Assembly: GCA_030668045.1 (NCBI GenBank) | Contig: DAOUUR010000163.1 | Location: 1 to 6,064 of the forward strand | Source of the DNA: a bacterium | GTDB taxonomy: Bacteria > Zixibacteria > MSB-5A5 > GN15 > FEB-12 | Reading direction: 5' to 3' | Length of the DNA: 6,064 nt | Shown: positions 3-6,064 of the stretch, piece after piece | Layout of the letters: every line of letters starts with the position of its first letter | Numbering within the stretch: position 1 is the first letter of the stretch | Made by a program: the position numbers and the translations under genes | Notes under the pieces: model-generated | The model's database searches: none | Told to the model about the DNA's origin: nothing | Seen by the model: only the letters and a program-made list of their open reading frames with translations

Positions 3-968
3 TTGGTATGCTCTGTTGGTTGGAGTCTCTACTCTATCACCTTTTCGCACTCGCGAATTGGCTGCGCGGTTGGATCATCAGGAACAATCCTGACATCATA
101 TGATGGTGGCGCCAATTGGGAAGAAATCATAAGTGGCAATCGAGACCCGGTGTTCGATATTCAGTTTGTTGATGCCAACCGAGGTTGGGCGACCGGTTTT
201 GGAGGAGTCTTCCATACCGGCAATGGCGGCGTAAACTGGGTGCAATCCGAAGGAGTCGGAGGCTGGTCTCTCTATTTCCTCGACGACCAGAATGGCTGGG
301 CAAGTGGCGCCGGGGGAAATCTGGACAAGACAACCGACGGAGGTATGACCTGGACGCGCGTTCACGAAACGATCCAATCGCGAGTTTATGATATCATATT
401 CGTTGATGACCTGGTCGGGTGGGCTGTTGGCATACCTTACATAATGAAGACTGTTGACGGTGGGCAGAGTTGGGCTGAGAACGGATCAGGGATTCATGCA
501 CGACTACACAGTATCTGCTTCGTCGGCTCGGATTATGGTTGGGCGGTAGGAGACGACGGAATTATTGTTCACACTAACAACGGCGGCGACTCATGGGAAA
601 TTCAGGAAACACCAACGGACGCCTATCTGGAGGGGGTTTTCTTCATTGATACACTTCAAGGCTGGGCGGTCGGCTTCCGTACGATCCTTGTTACTCATGA
701 CGGCGGGATTAACTGGGAATTTCAATCAGACCTTGAATCGCCTCCTGCTTCGGTGTTTTTTTCTGTCGCGTTTACAGATAACCTTACCGGTTGGATTGTC
801 GGAGATAAAGGTCTGGTGTTGGGCACTACTAATGGTGGTGAGACTTGGACGCGACAACAGACTCACACTTCGGCCACCATGCACTGCCTATCTGCGGTTG
901 ACTCAAGAACCGTATGGACCGGCGGTTGGACCGGTACGATTCTTCACACCACCAATGGTGGCTGGTAG
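3..968 (+). CDS. YCF48/BNR-like beta-propeller protein, 5'-partial
   Basis: The reading frame is open to the left window edge, so the true start and any signal peptide lie outside; the TTG at 3 is only the first usable codon and is probably internal. The 321 visible residues are built almost entirely of a repeat of about 40 residues, pattern GWavG..G.i..T.dGG..W. GG..W units end near W39, W79, W117, W157, W198, W238 and W282, and a last one is cut short at the C-terminus (TTNGGW, residues 316-321). This is the signature of the YCF48/photosynthesis-system-II-assembly-factor-like and BNR/sialidase-like propeller families. In non-photosynthetic bacteria these are usually exported or surface proteins of unknown role, so no PSII function is implied. 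No C-terminal sorting domain follows the propeller. The gene converges on the symporter gene with 10 bases between stop codons. Fold assignment is confident; biological role is unknown. Confidence 0.85.
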   Translation: MVCSVGWSLYSITFSHSRIGCAVGSSGTILTSYDGGANWEEIISGNRDPVFDIQFVDANRGWATGFGGVFHTGNGGVNWVQSEGVGGWSLYFLDDQNGWASGAGGNLDKTTDGGMTWTRVHETIQSRVYDIIFVDDLVGWAVGIPYIMKTVDGGQSWAENGSGIHARLHSICFVGSDYGWAVGDDGIIVHTNNGGDSWEIQETPTDAYLEGVFFIDTLQGWAVGFRTILVTHDGGINWEFQSDLESPPASVFFSVAFTDNLTGWIVGDKGLVLGTTNGGETWTRQQTHTSATMHCLSAVDSRTVWTGGWTGTILHTTNGGW

Positions 969-978
969 CAGCTTAACC

Positions 979-2313
979 CTACAACCCCATGCGTTGGTAA
1001 TAGTCTTTCAGGGCGCGGACTACTCTCCCGGACAATAGTAGCGAGCCGACCAGGGTCGGGACGGCCATGATCGCGAAGTTGGTGTCGATCACATTCAGTA
1101 CCGTGTCCTGACTCCAGATCGCCGCCAGCGGTAACGAGATCAGATACACCCAGACATATTGCTGCCCGATCCGTTTTCCGAAAAGGTATTTGGCGCATTT
1201 GAGACTGTAGTACGAGTAGGAAATCATTGTTGAAACCGAGAACATAATTATAACCAGCGTTAGAATATACCGGCCGGTCATGGGGATCATTGTATCAAAT
1301 GCATTGGCCGTCATCAGGACGCCGTCCGATTCGGCGGCGACACCGCTTATCAAAATGACCAGGCCCGTCAAGGTACACACAATGTGTGTGTCGAAAAATG
1401 GTCCGAGCATGGCGATCAGACCTTCGCGGATCGGTTCTTTTGTCTTGGCCGCGCCATGAGCCATCGGAGCGGTGCCGATGCCGGCTTCGTTGGAAAATGC
1501 GGCGCGTTTGACGCCGGTAATCATGATCTGACGAACCGCCAGCCCGGTCCCACCACCGACAATCGCCTCGCCGCCGAACGCTGCTGAGAAGATTGATACC
1601 ACGATATCGGGTACGAGCGACAGGTTGGTCAGGACGATATACAATGCCGCGCCGACGTAGAGGAGAAACATCGCGGGAACGACTTTCGATGCGACCTGTC
1701 CGACTCGCACGATGCCACCGACGATGACAACCCCGACCAGAACCATTCCTACCAATCCGGTGCCGATGCGACTGATGCCGTAATCGGCATGCAACAAACC
1801 TGAAAGCTGGTTGATTTGGAACATCGCCAGACATCCTATCATGCCGCAGATCGCAAAGATGATAGCGAGCGGTTTGAACGCTTTGCCGAGGCCGACCTCA
1901 AGGAAATACATCGGGCCGCCTTGATCGATACCGTCCTCGTCCTTCTTGCGATAAAGGACAGCGAGGGTGCAGGTGAAAAACTTAGTGGCCATGCCGACCA
2001 GCCCGGCCAGCCACATCCAGAATATTGCCCCCGGTCCACCTAATGCGATTGCTACCGCGACGCCCGATATGTTGCCCATCCCGATGGTAGCCGACAGGGC
2101 CGATGATAACGCCTGGAAATGGCTGATCTCGCCCGGATCATCGGGGTTGTCGAACTTGCCGCGGAGGATGTCGATGGCATGTCTTAGTCCGCGGAACGGA
2201 AGGAAGCGGCATGCGAATGTGAAGTATAAACCGGCAGCGATCAGAAGAACCGCCAACGGCAGTCCCCAGGCGATCTCTACAGCTTCGGCCCAGAAGTTGT
2301 CAAACCAGTTCAT
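979..2313 (-). CDS. Sodium:alanine/glycine symporter (AGCS family)
   Basis: This is an inner-membrane secondary transporter that would couple sodium (or proton) entry to uptake of a small neutral amino acid such as alanine or glycine. The 444-residue protein has the usual family length and roughly ten or eleven hydrophobic segments. Family landmarks include the SATIGMGNISGVA stretch (residues 74-86), GGPGAIFWMW (92-101), DQGGPMYF (130-137) and FSNEAGIGTAP (273-283), followed by EPIREGLIAMLGPFFDT (293-309). These regions are highly conserved in AGCS proteins. The start chosen is the ATG at 2311-2313 (MNWFDNFW), which matches where family members begin. An in-frame extension to 2517 would add 68 polar residues and overlap the DinB gene, so I reject it. 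The Shine-Dalgarno signal is weak: a GGAG lies 14 bases upstream. The gene is intact; the exact substrate cannot be read from sequence. Confidence 0.95.
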   Translation of the reverse strand: MNWFDNFWAEAVEIAWGLPLAVLLIAAGLYFTFACRFLPFRGLRHAIDILRGKFDNPDDPGEISHFQALSSALSATIGMGNISGVAVAIALGGPGAIFWMWLAGLVGMATKFFTCTLAVLYRKKDEDGIDQGGPMYFLEVGLGKAFKPLAIIFAICGMIGCLAMFQINQLSGLLHADYGISRIGTGLVGMVLVGVVIVGGIVRVGQVASKVVPAMFLLYVGAALYIVLTNLSLVPDIVVSIFSAAFGGEAIVGGGTGLAVRQIMITGVKRAAFSNEAGIGTAPMAHGAAKTKEPIREGLIAMLGPFFDTHIVCTLTGLVILISGVAAESDGVLMTANAFDTMIPMTGRYILTLVIIMFSVSTMISYSYYSLKCAKYLFGKRIGQQYVWVYLISLPLAAIWSQDTVLNVIDTNFAIMAVPTLVGSLLLSGRVVRALKDYYQRMGL

Positions 2314-2349
2314 GAGGCGATGGGTTACTCCATGTGTCTTTGCTGAGTC

Positions 2350-2378
2350 AATAAAAGTGTGGGTTTGGGTCGAGGCAA
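2350..2378 (-). promoter_or_regulatory. Possible sigma-70-like promoter for the symporter gene
   Basis: On the minus strand, TTGCCT (2378-2373) and TTTATT (2355-2350) are separated by 17 bases; each matches the -35 or -10 consensus at four of six positions. Transcription would begin roughly 30 bases before the symporter ATG. It lies in the 112-base divergent gap (2314-2425), which must also hold the DinB promoter; a TA-rich run at 2383-2390 could be its -10 box, but no convincing -35 partner is seen. Such weak matches occur by chance, so confidence is low. Confidence 0.25.
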
Positions 2379-2425
2379 GGTTTATATATAGACGGTAGTA
2401 GCGAGATGTTGGAGAGGTTTGCCAA

Positions 2426-2944
2426 ATGATAACTCTTACACGATGGATTGATCGTAAGTTTGAATTCAATTTTCCGGTTGGGTTGTATCCGTGTATTCTC
2501 GAACGACTGCGAGGCACGCCGGTACGACTGGAGCAGATGGTCGGTGCGATTCCAAAAGAGGTTGCGACGAACTCTGTGAGGGACGGCTGGTCAATTCAGG
2601 AACATGTTGGGCATTTGATACAGGTTGAAGGACTTCACGACGGTCGCATAGACGATTTTGTAGAGGGCGTGGAGACTCTTCGTGCTGCCGATATGTCCAA
2701 TCGTCGCACCTACGATGCGGACTATAACGCGCTGGAGCTTGCCGAAGTGCTGGCGAAGTTTCGAGAGGTGCGGGCTGGTTTTGTGGAGCGGTTGGAATCG
2801 GTAGATGATGAGGTGGTTGCCCGGGTCGTGCAGCATCCGCGGTTGGACGTTCCGATGCGATTGTGCGATATGGCGTATTTTGCCGCCGAGCATGATGACC
2901 AACACGTGGCTACAATACGGGACCTGATGCAGCAGTTGGGGTAG
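2426..2944 (+). CDS. DinB-like (DinB_2/YfiT-type) metal-binding protein
   Basis: This 172-residue protein has the length and sequence style of the DinB/YfiT superfamily, four-helix-bundle proteins that usually hold a divalent metal through three histidines. Known members include bacillithiol and mycothiol S-transferases and many proteins of unknown role. The landmark GWSIQEHVGHL (residues 54-64) supplies the likely first ligand, H63. EHDDQH (155-160) supplies H156 and H160 in the typical HxxxH arrangement. No signal peptide or membrane segment is seen, so it is probably cytoplasmic. The ATG is supported by a good Shine-Dalgarno sequence, GGAGAGG at 2411-2417, 8 bases upstream. It is divergent from the symporter. 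The last 20 codons and the sequence beyond the stop recur near the right window edge, which makes this gene the left boundary of the cytochrome segment. The fold is a confident call; the reaction is unknown. Confidence 0.85.
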   Translation: MITLTRWIDRKFEFNFPVGLYPCILERLRGTPVRLEQMVGAIPKEVATNSVRDGWSIQEHVGHLIQVEGLHDGRIDDFVEGVETLRAADMSNRRTYDADYNALELAEVLAKFREVRAGFVERLESVDDEVVARVVQHPRLDVPMRLCDMAYFAAEHDDQHVATIRDLMQQLG

Positions 2945-2974
2945 ATAGGGCCTCAGAATCCATCATCACCGCAC
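2881..2974 (+). repeat. Direct repeat, left copy (DinB 3' end plus flank)
   Basis: This 94-base stretch aligns without gaps to 5971-6064, with 85 of 94 bases identical. It covers the last 20 codons and stop of the DinB gene plus 30 bases of flank. Differences are at 2884, 2893, 2896, 2911 and 2931 in the coding part, and at 2947, 2951, 2952 and 2963 after the stop. The first four coding changes fall at third codon positions and are silent; the fifth changes Gln to Arg. Similarity to the left of 2881 stops abruptly. The right limit is unknown because the second copy runs into the window edge. Confidence 0.93.
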
Positions 2975-2989
2975 TAGAAGAGTGCTGGT
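2968..2989 (+). terminator. Hairpin after the DinB gene, possible terminator
   Basis: GCACT (2971-2975) and AGTGC (2981-2985) form a perfect 5-bp stem around the loop AGAAG. It can extend by ACC/GGT pairing past one bulged T (2986). It begins 24 bases after the DinB stop codon. There is no T-run after it, so it is not a textbook intrinsic terminator; it could be a weak or factor-assisted one, or just a structured 3' end. The right repeat copy reaches the first half of this stem before the window ends. Confidence 0.35.
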
Positions 2990-3067
2990 AGAGATATTGG
3001 TTGCGCCGATTGTTTCGTCAGGATTTGCGTAAGAAAAATTTATAAACACGCTCCATGTTGTCTGCTT

Positions 3068-3085
3068 TCAATAGAAAACTATTGA
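3068..3085. promoter_or_regulatory. Perfect dyad overlapping the -35 box (operator candidate)
   Basis: TCAATAG (3068-3074) and CTATTGA (3079-3085) are perfect 7-base inverted arms around AAAA. The right arm overlaps the TTGACA -35 box of the cytochrome operon by four bases (3082-3085), so a dimeric regulator bound here could compete with or contact RNA polymerase. The 18-base length and two-fold symmetry resemble sites of helix-turn-helix dimers such as the CRP/FNR group, but the arms are not the FNR consensus. The regulator is not identified. Confidence 0.45.
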
Positions 3086-3110
3086 CATGCAAGTAGTCAC
3101 TCACTAATTT
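3082..3110 (+). promoter_or_regulatory. Sigma-70-like promoter of the cytochrome operon
   Basis: A perfect TTGACA at 3082-3087 is followed after 17 bases by TAATTT at 3105-3110, which matches the -10 consensus at three of six positions. Transcription would begin near 3117, giving a leader of about 30 bases before the ATG at 3148 (about 50 to the alternative GTG at 3166). The good -35 box, ideal spacing and weak -10 box, flanked by two dyads, suggest a regulated promoter. Confidence 0.5.
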
Positions 3111-3127
3111 TTTTGTCGGAGACAAAA
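3111..3127. promoter_or_regulatory. Second perfect dyad near the predicted transcription start
   Basis: TTTTGTC (3111-3117) and GACAAAA (3121-3127) are perfect 7-base inverted arms around GGA. It sits directly after the proposed -10 box and spans the predicted transcription start, a common position for a repressor operator. If transcription began at or before 3111 it could instead form a hairpin at the mRNA 5' end. It differs in sequence from the dyad at 3068-3085, so two regulators or two site types are possible. Confidence 0.4.
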
Positions 3128-3147
3128 CAATAAAATTACTATCTTGA

Positions 3148-4554
3148 ATGAGAAAGGATGCTCACGTGTTATTCCCCAGAATTATTAACGCCTATCTAAA
3201 ATCAAGCACAGTTTGTTTTTCATTGCTTGCGTTTTTTTGTGTCGCTTTAGTAGCCGTATTACCCGTTAGCGCCGGGGAAAACGCGAACGCGGCCAAACAT
3301 AAATATGGTGAATGGGAAAAACCGGATTATTGCGGCAGCTCCTGTCACGTTGATATTTATCAGCAGTGGAAGCAATCCATGATGTCGCAGTCGTACACTC
3401 ATCATTGGGATGAAATCGAGTATTTCAAGTTGGCTATTCCACATGCCGAGAAAGACGAAATTGTTGCCGAGGTCAAAGAGGGATGTAACGGGTGTCATGC
3501 ACCCATGTCTTTGTTAGTCGGTGATGTTCCCCCGCCTCGCCCCGAGGAAAACTCTCGTGCGAACGAAGGGGTTCACTGTGATTTCTGTCACACTATCACA
3601 GGCTATGATGGTGAATTACCTTTTAATTTCAATTATGTTGTGGATCCCGGTGATACCAAGCATGGACCTCGTGAAAACCCGGAATCACCCGCTCACGAAA
3701 CTTTTAAGTCCGACTTCCTGGCCAGCGCAGATTTTTGCGGTATCTGCCATAATGAAAAAGATTCGTATGGGATGTGGGTAAAGTCCACTCATCTCGAATG
3801 GAAAGAAGGACCATACGCCGCCGAGGGTGTTCGCTGTCATGATTGTCACATGACCAACGCCAAGTCCGTTACAGCGTCGATGGGACCAGAGTACGAAGAC
3901 GCGCGCCAGCATCTATTCCATGGCGCACATGATCCGGGTAAAGTAAGAGGCGTGGTAGAACTTCGCATTCATCCCGATGTCAACGAAGCTGAACCGGGGG
4001 AAGCAGTTAAGTTTACAGTCGCACTCTTTAACCAGAAAACAGGGCACAAATTTCCTACCGGTTCGGTTGAAGATCGCATTCTGTGGCTTCATGTTGAGGC
4101 AACTGATGCTGCCGGCAAGGCTTACCATCTACCTGTTGATAAAAAGGGATTCGAAGGGGAAGAATATACTATTGGCTCTGATGTTTTAGCTTATCAGGAT
4201 ATGGGTATAGCTCTGGACGATCCTGATTTCAAGGGCGTTCAACGTGATGGAATCCCGATCGGAAACCGTATTTTCCGGATGCCTTATTTTGATCCTCAAG
4301 GAAGAATGACTATCCAGCAGTGGTACACAAAATCATTCGGTGTCGATTACCGTATAGGGCCTCGCGAAACAAAGCTGGAAACGTTTTCTTTTGAATTACC
4401 TGATGATGTGGAACCGGGACAGATGAAAATCACGGCAACTCTCAATTATCAGCTTCTTGTCAAACCAGTTGCTGATTTTCTTGGTGTTCCCGAGGAAGAA
4501 TCCGCGATTATGGAAGTAAACAATCACTCAACCTATCTTGAAGTCCTGCCATAG
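3148..4554 (+). CDS. Secreted pentahaem cytochrome c (c554-like) with C-terminal beta domain
   Basis: The protein begins with a signal peptide: a basic start, a hydrophobic core at about residues 21-40, and likely cleavage after VSA at 42. It is therefore periplasmic or further exported. Residues 61-234 carry five haem-attachment motifs: CGSSCH (62-67, spacing CX3CH), CNGCH (113-117), CDFCH (144-148), CGICH (197-201) and CHDCH followed by Met (230-235). The order, the IYQQW after the first motif and the GV.C..CH contexts resemble the cytochrome c554/multihaem family. Residues of about 265-468 lack Cys and look like a beta-sandwich domain containing TGHKFPTG (298-305). The expected role is electron transfer; an enzymatic role cannot be excluded. 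The downstream haem-porin gene begins 8 bases after the stop, so the two are co-transcribed. The ATG at 3148 has no clear Shine-Dalgarno, whereas an in-frame GTG at 3166 has a good one, so the real start may be six codons later. Confidence 0.9.
   Translation: MRKDAHVLFPRIINAYLKSSTVCFSLLAFFCVALVAVLPVSAGENANAAKHKYGEWEKPDYCGSSCHVDIYQQWKQSMMSQSYTHHWDEIEYFKLAIPHAEKDEIVAEVKEGCNGCHAPMSLLVGDVPPPRPEENSRANEGVHCDFCHTITGYDGELPFNFNYVVDPGDTKHGPRENPESPAHETFKSDFLASADFCGICHNEKDSYGMWVKSTHLEWKEGPYAAEGVRCHDCHMTNAKSVTASMGPEYEDARQHLFHGAHDPGKVRGVVELRIHPDVNEAEPGEAVKFTVALFNQKTGHKFPTGSVEDRILWLHVEATDAAGKAYHLPVDKKGFEGEEYTIGSDVLAYQDMGIALDDPDFKGVQRDGIPIGNRIFRMPYFDPQGRMTIQQWYTKSFGVDYRIGPRETKLETFSFELPDDVEPGQMKITATLNYQLLVKPVADFLGVPEEESAIMEVNNHSTYLEVLP
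3153..3158 (+). promoter_or_regulatory. Shine-Dalgarno favouring a GTG start at 3166
   Basis: AAAGGA lies 7 bases before an in-frame GTG at 3166-3168. That start would shorten the cytochrome by six residues and leave its signal peptide intact. The ATG at 3148 has only GGAGA at 3118-3122, 25 bases upstream. Sequence alone cannot settle which is used. Confidence 0.45.
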
Positions 4555-4559
4555 GAGGA
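4554..4559 (+). promoter_or_regulatory. Shine-Dalgarno overlapping the upstream stop codon
   Basis: GGAGGA starts on the last base of the pentahaem gene's TAG stop (4552-4554) and ends 3 bases before the next ATG (4563). This is a strong site and suggests that ribosomes finishing the first gene restart on the second, which would keep the two cytochromes in proportion. Confidence 0.75.
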
Positions 4560-4562
4560 ACT

Positions 4563-5792
4563 ATGACCAGTCAAAGACATTCTAAAAGAATAACATTAGT
4601 CACCACATTTCTTTTTGTGGTTATTCTTCTGGCCGCTTATCCAGCGAACGCGATTCCCGCTTTTGCCAGAAAATACAGCATGTCATGCACTACCTGTCAT
4701 GCTCCGATTCCTCGGTTGAAAGCGTTTGGGGATGAATTCGCAGGCAATGGTTTTGAACTTGAAAATCAGGAAGCTCCTCGCTTTACCATGAAAGACGGCG
4801 ATGACAATCTTGAGCTGATGAGATCATTTCCGCTCGGCGCCCGTTTTGACGGTTTTATAAAGTACCATAGTGAAACCGATAAAAATATCGACTTCACTGC
4901 TCCGTACAATTTGAAAATACTGTCCGGGGGTACACTGGGTAAAAACCTCGCCTACTATTTTTACTTCTTCCTAAGTGAGAGAGGTGAAGTTGCTGGGATT
5001 GAGGACGCTTTCATAATGTACAATAATCTGTTCGATCAGGACCTTGATGTTTATGTTGGACAATTTCAGGTATGTGATCCGCTATTTAAAAGAGAACTTC
5101 GTCTTACTTATGAAGACTACATGATCTATAAGCAAAGTTACGGTGATACAAGAATCGATCTCACTTATGATCGAGGTGTTATGGTGACGTACGGCATAGA
5201 GAATGGTCCCGACCTGATCTTTGAAATTCTGAACGGAAACGGTATCGGGGAAGCTGACGAGAATCGTACTTACGATGATGATAAATACAAAACGTTTGCC
5301 GGTCGTATCAGCTATGACCTGACCGCTAATATCAGATTTGGAGCCTTTGGGTATTACGGAAAAGAAGAGGCTGAATCATACAATACGCCCTTATCAGATA
5401 CCACAATGAGAACCAACGATGTTACTTATTATGGTCCCGACATGACGCTCTCATTTGATAAGTTAGAACTTAATCTTCAATATATGATGCGAAACGATGA
5501 AAATCCCAATTTTGCTTATATCGTTCCAGCAAATGACGTGGAAATCAGTGGTGGATTCGCGGAGTTGATCTTTTGGCCGAACGGAGATAAAAGTCGCTGG
5601 TATCTTGTAGGTCTTTATAATCAGATCGAGATGGATATTGGCGATTCTATGGGTAAGCAAACGATGTATCAGACTGTGTCTGGCCATATCGGATATGTAT
5701 TGCGAACGAATCTTCGTTTGATTATGGAAAACACGTATGATATTAAAAATGAGGAAAACCGTGTTATTGTTGGTTTTGTAAGCGGTTTCTAA
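4563..5792 (+). CDS. Monohaem cytochrome-porin fusion, Cyc2-like architecture
   Basis: This 409-residue protein has three visible parts. Residues 1-30 are a signal peptide (basic start, hydrophobic core 11-25, cleavage after ANA). A short haem segment follows, IPAFARKYSMSCTTCH (31-46), with C42, C45 and H46 as the haem c site, then P.L..FG..F..NGF (50-64). The rest, from about residue 90, is rich in alternating aromatic/hydrophobic residues, Gly-Asn-Asp turns and no transmembrane helix, and ends in Phe, as expected of an outer-membrane beta-barrel. The plan of one N-terminal haem c followed by a barrel is that of the Cyc2 iron oxidases, and the AFAR...C..CH...P.L..FG phrase is similar. Sequence closeness to true Cyc2 is untested; similar haem-barrel proteins of unknown role appear to be common in Bacteroidetes and Ignavibacteria. 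A lone Cys (C171) lies in the barrel part. Likely job: moving electrons across the outer membrane, with the upstream pentahaem cytochrome as periplasmic partner. Confidence 0.85.
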   Translation: MTSQRHSKRITLVTTFLFVVILLAAYPANAIPAFARKYSMSCTTCHAPIPRLKAFGDEFAGNGFELENQEAPRFTMKDGDDNLELMRSFPLGARFDGFIKYHSETDKNIDFTAPYNLKILSGGTLGKNLAYYFYFFLSERGEVAGIEDAFIMYNNLFDQDLDVYVGQFQVCDPLFKRELRLTYEDYMIYKQSYGDTRIDLTYDRGVMVTYGIENGPDLIFEILNGNGIGEADENRTYDDDKYKTFAGRISYDLTANIRFGAFGYYGKEEAESYNTPLSDTTMRTNDVTYYGPDMTLSFDKLELNLQYMMRNDENPNFAYIVPANDVEISGGFAELIFWPNGDKSRWYLVGLYNQIEMDIGDSMGKQTMYQTVSGHIGYVLRTNLRLIMENTYDIKNEENRVIVGFVSGF

Positions 5793-5807
5793 ACTCTTGT
5801 ATCTATC

Positions 5808-5840
5808 AAAAACGGCGTCTTCAAAGACGCCGTTTTTTTT
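5808..5840 (+). terminator. Strong intrinsic terminator of the cytochrome operon
   Basis: AACGGCGTCT (5811-5820) pairs with AGACGCCGTT (5825-5834) around the loop TCAA. Flanking A and T bases (5808-5810 with 5835-5837) extend the stem, and eight T residues run from 5833 to 5840. It starts 15 bases after the porin stop codon. The A-run on the left side means it could also stop transcription arriving from the right on the minus strand. Confidence 0.93.
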
Positions 5841-5970
5841 GTGAGGATTCTTTTCATATGAAATTTAGACAGTAACTTTCTTGCTGCTCTGCTCAGTCCG
5901 ATTCTAACTGTCAGGGCAAGGGCTTCTTTAGTTACAGATTTTTGACAAAAGCACCCGCGCCTAATTTTTG
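5841..5970. other. Non-coding stretch with no recognised feature
   Basis: Between the terminator and the right repeat I see no supported gene, RNA or promoter. An open minus-strand frame (5995 back to 5789) crosses the terminator and the repeat, resembles nothing I know and is probably chance. Six-base inverted arms GTAACT/AGTTAC (5872-5877 and 5930-5935) are too far apart to be persuasive. A foreign junction should fall at the right end of this stretch, near 5970. Confidence 0.5.
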
Positions 5971-6064
5971 TGCTGCCGAGCACGACGACCAACACGTGGC
6001 GACAATACGGGACCTGATGCGGCAGTTGGGGTAGATCGGGTTTCAGAATCCAACATCACCGCAC
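5971..6064 (+). repeat. Direct repeat, right copy (DinB 3' end plus flank)
   Basis: This is the partner of 2881-2974, in the same orientation and exactly 3090 bases away, 85 of 94 bases identical with no gaps. It starts abruptly at 5971: the 10 bases before it do not match the corresponding part of the DinB gene beyond T-rich chance identity. It runs to the window edge, so its full length and whether it contains the rest of the hairpin are unknown. Confidence 0.93.
5972..6034 (+). pseudogene. Orphan 3' fragment of a DinB-like gene
   Basis: Codons 5972-6034 encode AAEHDDQHVATIRDLMRQLG and a stop, identical to the last 20 residues of the DinB protein at 2426-2944 except Arg for Gln at the fourth-last position. 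The frame stays open upstream only to 5876 (after a TAA at 5873-5875), with unrelated residues and no ATG start, so the first 152 codons of the gene are missing. The metal-binding HxxxH pair is present but has no protein to belong to. It is either the displaced 3' end of an interrupted gene or what is left of a second DinB paralogue. Confidence 0.85.

What the first reader, a model, noticed from the sequence alone, without database searches (positions are those of the whole stretch)
2881..6064. Cytochrome operon bracketed by duplicated 3' ends of a DinB gene
Seen: 94 bases at 2881-2974 recur ungapped at 5971-6064 with nine differences. Both copies contain the last 20 codons and stop of DinB plus 30 bases of flank, and a whole promoter-to-terminator operon lies between them. 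Known: some integrative elements enter at the 3' end of a gene and carry a replacement 3' end, leaving an intact gene at one side and a displaced tail at the other, with the tails differing mostly at silent sites. Inference: the operon may be a non-autonomous or decayed inserted cassette using this gene end as an attachment or recombination site. The alternative is tandem DinB paralogues with most of the second lost. The lack of any recombinase in 3 kb is the main weakness.
Basis: partly seen in the sequence, partly recalled or inferred. Interest (0 to 1): 0.72.

Follow-up and report, generated by a model that had tools for sequence, protein, structure and literature searches.

The report
Displaced gene tail from patchwork recombination
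In this bacterial draft genome a two-gene cytochrome operon, followed by a broken piece of a sensor-kinase gene, sits between an intact gene and a second, displaced copy of that gene's tail; this likely is the scar of ordinary sloppy recombination, predicted to need no dedicated mobile element, so it is a modest finding.

Summary
The repeat is real: 2881-2974 recurs at 5971-6064 with nine differences. The window is a complete contig (C285) of a 622-contig draft genome, so the right copy is cut by the contig end. Contig C431 of the same genome starts with 47 bases homologous to window 2968-3013; its first seven bases equal the window's last seven. It is probably the continuation, which would extend the repeat to about 127 bp.

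A sister species keeps the symporter-DinB block (about 90% identical) without the operon. In 132 genomes of the phylum, 10 carry both DinB and cytB and only this one has them on one contig.

The right copy is not a clean attachment site. Bases about 5895-5976 are, on the minus strand, the decayed 3' end of a hybrid histidine kinase gene, fused to DinB's last 16-19 codons at short microhomology. At the six differing sites of 2894-2952 the right copy matches the sister species six times of six, so no crossover inside the repeat is seen. No recombinase was found.

Best explanation (0.5): homology-facilitated illegitimate recombination that brought in a DinB 3' end, operon and kinase fragment, displacing the native tail. 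Rivals: duplication plus deletion, a recombinase-driven cassette, an assembly artefact. Known kind; low interest.

The parts
979..2310 (-). AgcS-type sodium:alanine symporter gene, left neighbour shared with the sister species G002
   Evidence: Pfam PF01235 E 1.9e-120; TIGR00835; G002 98% identical at protein level
2426..2944 (+). Intact DinB-superfamily gene (172 aa), possibly carrying an imported 3' end
   Evidence: Pfam PF12867 E 5.7e-15; 88% identical to G002
2887..3013 (+). Left copy of the DinB tail plus downstream flank; homology to the right copy and C431 ends near 3013
3148..4554 (+). Multiheme c-type cytochrome gene (468 aa; four CxxCH and one CxxxCH motif), called cytA here
   Evidence: PF13435 E 2.9e-6; motifs counted; homologues in several phyla by source names
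4563..5792 (+). Second operon gene (409 aa, one CTTCH motif near the N terminus), called cytB here; no Pfam or NCBIfam match; follows cytA in many relatives
5808..5837 (.). Perfect 14-bp inverted repeat followed by a T run, terminator-like
   Evidence: inverted repeat I2; sequence
5895..5976 (-). Decayed 3' end of a hybrid histidine kinase gene (receiver domain, ..AAQKLGAGAFVK.., then a one-base frameshift), broken at the joint; similarity may reach 5983 on the right and, weakly, about 5845 on the left
   Evidence: 0 of 300 shuffles of 5838-5976 reach the score
5977..5984 (.). Joint between the kinase fragment and the DinB tail, with short imperfect microhomology around GC(C)GAG; exact base not resolvable
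   Evidence: alignments
5977..6064 (+). Displaced DinB tail plus flank, cut by the contig end; probably continues as C431:8-47

Best explanation
The window holds a displaced DinB tail fused to a truncated histidine-kinase gene end behind a cytochrome operon, and this is likely the product of homology-facilitated illegitimate recombination, predicted to have needed no dedicated recombinase. In this reading, incoming DNA from a close relative carried a DinB 3' end, its flank, the cytochrome operon and part of a convergent kinase gene. It would have recombined by homology somewhere in or upstream of DinB (inferred), leaving one complete DinB gene. Its non-homologous end would have been joined at a few bases of microhomology to the resident DinB near codon 154-157 (joint seen, process inferred). 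The resident last 16-19 codons and flank were thereby pushed 3 kb downstream, next to what is probably the original right neighbour, a serine/threonine kinase gene on contig C431 (adjacency inferred). Shown: the repeat, the kinase fragment, the joint, the sister locus without the operon, and the state of the differing sites. Inferred: donor, direction, single event, and the route of DNA uptake.
For: The sister species G002 has symporter and DinB at about 90% DNA identity with no operon. The kinase 3' end abuts the DinB tail: DNA matches of 87-89% over 35-38 nt in two genomes at E 4.6e-6 and 7.7e-6, reading AAQKLGAGAFVK, 70% over 90 nt with G036 under looser scoring, 0 of 300 shuffles as good. 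At the six sites of 2894-2952 where the copies differ, the right copy equals G002 in 6 of 6; the left tail differs from G002 at 12 of 59 sites and the right at 6 of 59. At one of these sites (2931) the third DinB allele P0003 also has the right copy's residue, R, where the left has Q. Both copies share residues (V, D) absent from G002 and P0003, so the donor would be a close relative. C431 starts with the same flank (0 of 300 shuffles). No recombinase among the proteins scanned, no phage family for four window proteins, no Rfam match, no tRNA in the stretches scanned. In 132 genomes, DinB (E up to 1e-30) and cytB (E up to 1e-60) occur together in 10 and share a contig only here. Displaced 3' ends by this route are proposed for Vibrio T6SS and, hypothetically, Rhs loci (PMC5361080, passages); a one-sided homologous anchor and 3-10 bp microhomology are described for the process (PMC3240628, passages).
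Against: No genome with the proposed donor order DinB-cytochrome-kinase, and none with DinB-flank-C431, was found; most metagenomes were out of reach. The 6:0 split rests on one DNA outgroup, and a clock would expect both copies to change. The left tail's excess over the DinB body is not significant (10 of 57 against 53 of 468, p = 0.19; right tail 6 of 57, p = 1.0), so no homologous crossover point is visible. The microhomology is short and imperfect. C431's adjacency rests on 47 bases at 81% and a seven-base overlap; no overlap of assembler size was found. The fragment's partners are paralogues from a large kinase family, so the donor kinase is unknown. The literature passages say the process is 100 to 10^6 times rarer than homologous recombination.
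Confidence: 0.5

Rival explanations
1. Two DinB loci, made by an older tandem or segmental duplication, once bracketed the operon and a full kinase gene; a deletion then ran from inside the kinase gene to inside the second DinB gene, leaving its tail.
For: Tandem full-length DinB pairs exist in the family: G021 (matches 23 bases apart) and G074 (209 bases apart). The joint looks like a deletion joint. Flank is duplicated as well as the gene end. In the closest operon relative, G084, a receiver-domain gene lies about 0.7 kb downstream of cytB, though on the same strand and only 27-30% alike.
Against: It needs at least two events. None of the 132 genomes has the operon between two DinB genes. 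Two copies of equal age would not be expected to differ 6:0 from the outgroup, though the numbers are small.
Confidence: 0.25
2. A non-autonomous cassette integrated by a recombinase supplied in trans at the 3' end of DinB, carrying a replacement 3' end, as the prophage e14 does at icd.
For: Intact gene on the left, displaced tail on the right, cargo between, sister without cargo. The longest identical word between the copies is 19 bp, at 2912-2930, enough for a core.
Against: No recombinase among the proteins scanned of the window or C431. A crossover in that 19-bp core predicts that the left copy is native at 2896 and 2911; the right copy is G002-like there instead. The element's right edge is a broken gene, not an element end. 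Two viral-collection scans, with the cytochrome protein and with a DinB-tail pattern, gave nothing.
Confidence: 0.1
3. Assembly or library artefact: the last ~90 bases of the contig were joined falsely, or two strains were merged.
For: The joint lies only about 81-88 bases from the contig end; the genome is in 622 contigs with contamination 4.77.
Against: A random chimera would not be expected to pick the tail of the very gene lying 3 kb upstream. The copies share no exact word longer than 19 bases in the stretches compared, below the usual assembly word sizes (recalled). Right-copy bases are not copied from the left copy, and C431 independently carries the continuing flank.
Confidence: 0.12

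Closest known systems
Homology-facilitated illegitimate recombination in transformable bacteria (Streptococcus, Acinetobacter, Pseudomonas; summarised in PMC3240628, passages seen)
   Same: One side continuous with homologous DNA, other side a joint at short microhomology, foreign DNA inserted and resident DNA lost or shifted
   Different: Here deduced from one natural locus; donor, anchor crossover and DNA uptake not shown
Displaced or orphaned 3' gene ends in Vibrio T6SS and Rhs loci (PMC5361080, passages seen)
   Same: New 3' region plus downstream cargo placed behind a conserved stretch, with the old 3' end shifted downstream
   Different: There effector-immunity modules in repeated arrays; here a DinB-superfamily gene and a cytochrome operon, apparently once
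Prophage e14 at icd in E. coli (PMC6379469, passages seen)
   Same: Integration at a gene 3' end, gene restored by a carried 3' end, duplicated pseudogene tail of 163 bp at the far side
   Different: e14 integrates site-specifically with defined att sites; here no recombinase was seen, no empty site was found, and the right edge is a broken kinase gene

Membership tests
Homology-facilitated illegitimate recombination product | Homologous DNA continuous on one side | tested here: met
   Window 975-2950 aligns to G002 at 90% without the insert
Homology-facilitated illegitimate recombination product | Other side joined at 3-10 bp microhomology | tested here: inconclusive
   Joint near 5977-5984; at least GC shared, imperfect GC(C)GAG; donor kinase sequence unknown
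Homology-facilitated illegitimate recombination product | Visible crossover from resident to donor sequence upstream | tested here: inconclusive
   Left tail 10 of 57 versus body 53 of 468 differences to G002, p = 0.19
Homology-facilitated illegitimate recombination product | A donor genome with the incoming gene order | tested here: inconclusive
   Not found in 132 genomes of the phylum, many of them fragmented; metagenomes could not be searched. The claim is 'works like', not proven membership
Integrative element at a gene 3' end (e14 type) | Encodes or sits beside a site-specific recombinase | tested here: not met
   None among the proteins scanned: window and three proteins of C431, 4544 bases
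Integrative element at a gene 3' end (e14 type) | Target gene kept intact by a carried 3' end | tested here: met
   DinB ORF of 172 aa is complete
Integrative element at a gene 3' end (e14 type) | Reciprocal exchange within the shared core | tested here: not met
   Right copy G002-like at 6 of 6 sites in 2894-2952; the three opposite sites (2880, 2884, 2893) lie in or beside kinase sequence; one outgroup only
Integrative element at a gene 3' end (e14 type) | Empty site passing directly from the gene to the right flank | tested here: inconclusive
   G002 lacks the insert but has another gene after DinB, and no orthologue of C431:1-2000 was found in it; no closer relative available
Tandem DinB paralogues | Second full-length or decaying DinB body | tested here: not met
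   The second match covers only residues 151-172; upstream is kinase sequence

The most novel reading that the evidence does not exclude
DinB 3' ends in this lineage serve as an attachment site for small recombinase-free cargo cassettes that carry their own replacement gene end and are moved in trans, here delivering a multiheme electron-transfer operon.
Probability: 0.06. Interest if true: 0.6.

Novelty: new member of a known kind. Interest (0 to 1): 0.2.

Why it matters
If right, it is a readable natural scar of one-sided homologous capture of a foreign cytochrome operon in a poorly known bacterial group, and a caution: a duplicated gene 3' end around cargo can mimic an integrative-element attachment site. 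It opens no new mechanism.

Tried and rejected
Crossover mosaic inside the repeat: the first polarisation with G002 looked like a perfect switch at 2893/2896 and favoured site-specific integration. It was dropped when the three left-most differing sites proved to lie in or beside kinase-derived sequence. Site 2963 was set aside before the count because G002 is not alignable beyond about 2953; taken at face value it also equals the right copy.

Mobile carrier: viral contigs gave nothing with the cytochrome protein or a DinB-tail pattern; phage records gave no match to 2870-3147; plasmid records gave 17 with only distant cytochromes at 23-28%. No Rfam family in the window, C431 and G002:C81; no tRNA in L003 (window 926-4441), C431, G002:C81, G036:C124 and G002:C303, so not the whole window.

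Kinase gene as a constant companion of the operon: not general, but not absent. Of 19 operon loci held, 14 with cytB, one (G084, L142) has a receiver-domain match about 0.7 kb downstream of cytB, on the same strand and 27-30% alike; in G012 (L082) one lies about 0.3 kb upstream of cytA on the minus strand; the other three matches lie 7 kb or more away.

Operon ancestral beside the symporter: in G086 and G087 the symporter lies near the operon but in another orientation with probable other genes between; left open.

Contig-end overlap to learn the assembler word size: no overlapping contigs found for the five ends tried.

Literature: one three-term search on the phylum and multiheme cytochromes held no paper. 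The search for the recombination process held 49 papers, 10 listed, two looked into by passages.
Full report
WHAT WAS CHECKED. The 94-base repeat with nine differences is as described. It is far beyond chance (0 of 300 shuffles). The window is a whole contig, G000:C285, of a draft genome in 622 contigs, 93.85% complete, so the right copy ends where the contig ends.

NEIGHBOURS. Left to right: a BNR-repeat protein, an AgcS symporter on the minus strand, a DinB-superfamily gene (Pfam DinB_2; as I recall, a metal-binding enzyme family and not DNA polymerase IV), a multiheme cytochrome (cytA), a second gene with one heme motif (cytB), and a terminator-like inverted repeat. The operon is less GC-rich (0.466 and 0.411) than symporter (0.556) and DinB (0.534), though C431 itself is 0.474, so composition is only weak evidence for import.

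RELATIVES. The sister species G002 (78% complete) keeps symporter and DinB at about 90% over 1977 bases and has no cytochrome operon in what is assembled; beyond that block both of its flanks differ. Its contig agrees in length and coordinates with DAOWIM010000061.1. The third genome of the genus, G001 (95% complete), has no cytA match and a DinB only 50% alike. In 132 genomes of the phylum, cytB (E up to 1e-60) is in 23, DinB (E up to 1e-30) in 37, both in 10 including G000; the two share a contig only in G000. Many of these genomes are fragmented, so separate contigs do not always mean distant loci. The cytochrome has homologues whose source names span several phyla (120 of 2252 hits listed); its best are 89% identical, on contigs of 1.8 and 3.2 kb.

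THE RIGHT EDGE. Searching 5780-6064 in 61 genomes gave, besides DinB tails, matches of 87% over 38 nt in G036 and 89% over 35 nt in G002 to 5939-5976, on the minus strand. Both are the 3' ends of hybrid histidine kinases with ..QKLGAGAFVKKPL.. near the end (domains of the G002 one). The window reads AAQKLGAGAFVK and then, in another frame, a sequence like the kinase's last residues. The kinase similarity runs right up to the DinB tail, so the joint is at about 5977-5984, DinB codon 154-157, with short imperfect microhomology. The right copy therefore begins at a broken gene, not at an element end.

WHAT LIES RIGHT OF 6064. Searching 2945-3160 in 61 genomes gave one place besides itself: C431:1-47 of the same genome, 81% identical to 2968-3013, at the first base of its contig and in the right orientation, E 3.0e-4. 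Its first seven bases equal the window's last seven. The left flank beyond the overlap matches C431 better than 300 of 300 shuffles, and a query joining the two ends aligns to 2878-3013 as one stretch at 82%. I infer that C431, whose first gene is a serine/threonine kinase with TPR repeats, follows the window. An overlap of assembler size was not found.

DIRECTION. At the six sites of 2894-2952 where the copies differ, the right copy has G002's base in all six; the left tail differs from G002 at 12 of 59 sites and the right at 6 of 59. A crossover inside the repeat would give a switch; none is seen once the kinase-derived bases are set aside. Both copies share two residues that G002 and a third allele, P0003, lack, and at one differing site P0003 sides with the right copy. 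The excess of changes in the left tail over the DinB body is not significant (p = 0.19), so the foreign origin of the left tail is suggested, not shown.

READING. One-sided homologous recombination with an illegitimate joint explains the structure in one event and needs no recombinase, of which none was seen among the proteins scanned. A like outcome, displaced 3' ends, is proposed for Vibrio T6SS and hypothesised for Rhs loci (PMC5361080, passages); the process and its 3-10 bp microhomology are described in PMC3240628 (passages), which also says it is much rarer than homologous recombination. A duplication followed by deletion remains possible; a receiver-domain gene near the operon in G084 shows that such genes can be its neighbours. 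An artefact is unlikely because a false joint would not be expected to pick the tail of the gene 3 kb upstream.

VERDICT. Observation confirmed; attachment-site reading not supported; a scar of a known kind, interest 0.2.

Noticed in passing
L143 (G086) and L144 (G087): An AgcS symporter 71-73% identical to the window's lies about 1.3-1.4 kb upstream of the same cytochrome operon in both genomes of one genus, in another orientation and with probable other genes between; among 9 genomes with symporter (E up to 1e-130) and cytB, 3 (with G000) have them on one contig.
   Followed up: partly
G021:C2:293866-294908 and G074:C1:2421181-2422418: Tandem full-length DinB gene pairs.
   Followed up: no
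L063 (G002:C81) 1-1665 and 3646-4829: The symporter-DinB block is flanked on both sides by genes unlike those in the window, so gene neighbourhoods change at both gene ends between the two species.
   Followed up: partly
L142 (G084:C312) 8073-14259: In the genome with the most similar cytB (74%), a receiver-domain gene and a long kinase-like open frame follow the operon on the same strand.
   Followed up: partly
L095 (C431) 2943-3428: A small protein with a weak XXXCH-domain match, below the curated cut-off, lies between two serine/threonine kinase genes.
   Followed up: no
L063 3637-3680: Just after the sister species' DinB stop there is an inverted repeat (GTCGGGTTT...AAACCCGAC) where the window's flank differs (seen in the sequence).
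   Followed up: no
G005:C29:7280-7372: Short match (E 2.0e-5) to residues 2-32 of DinB in a 46-aa open frame, possibly an orphan N-terminal piece.
   Followed up: no
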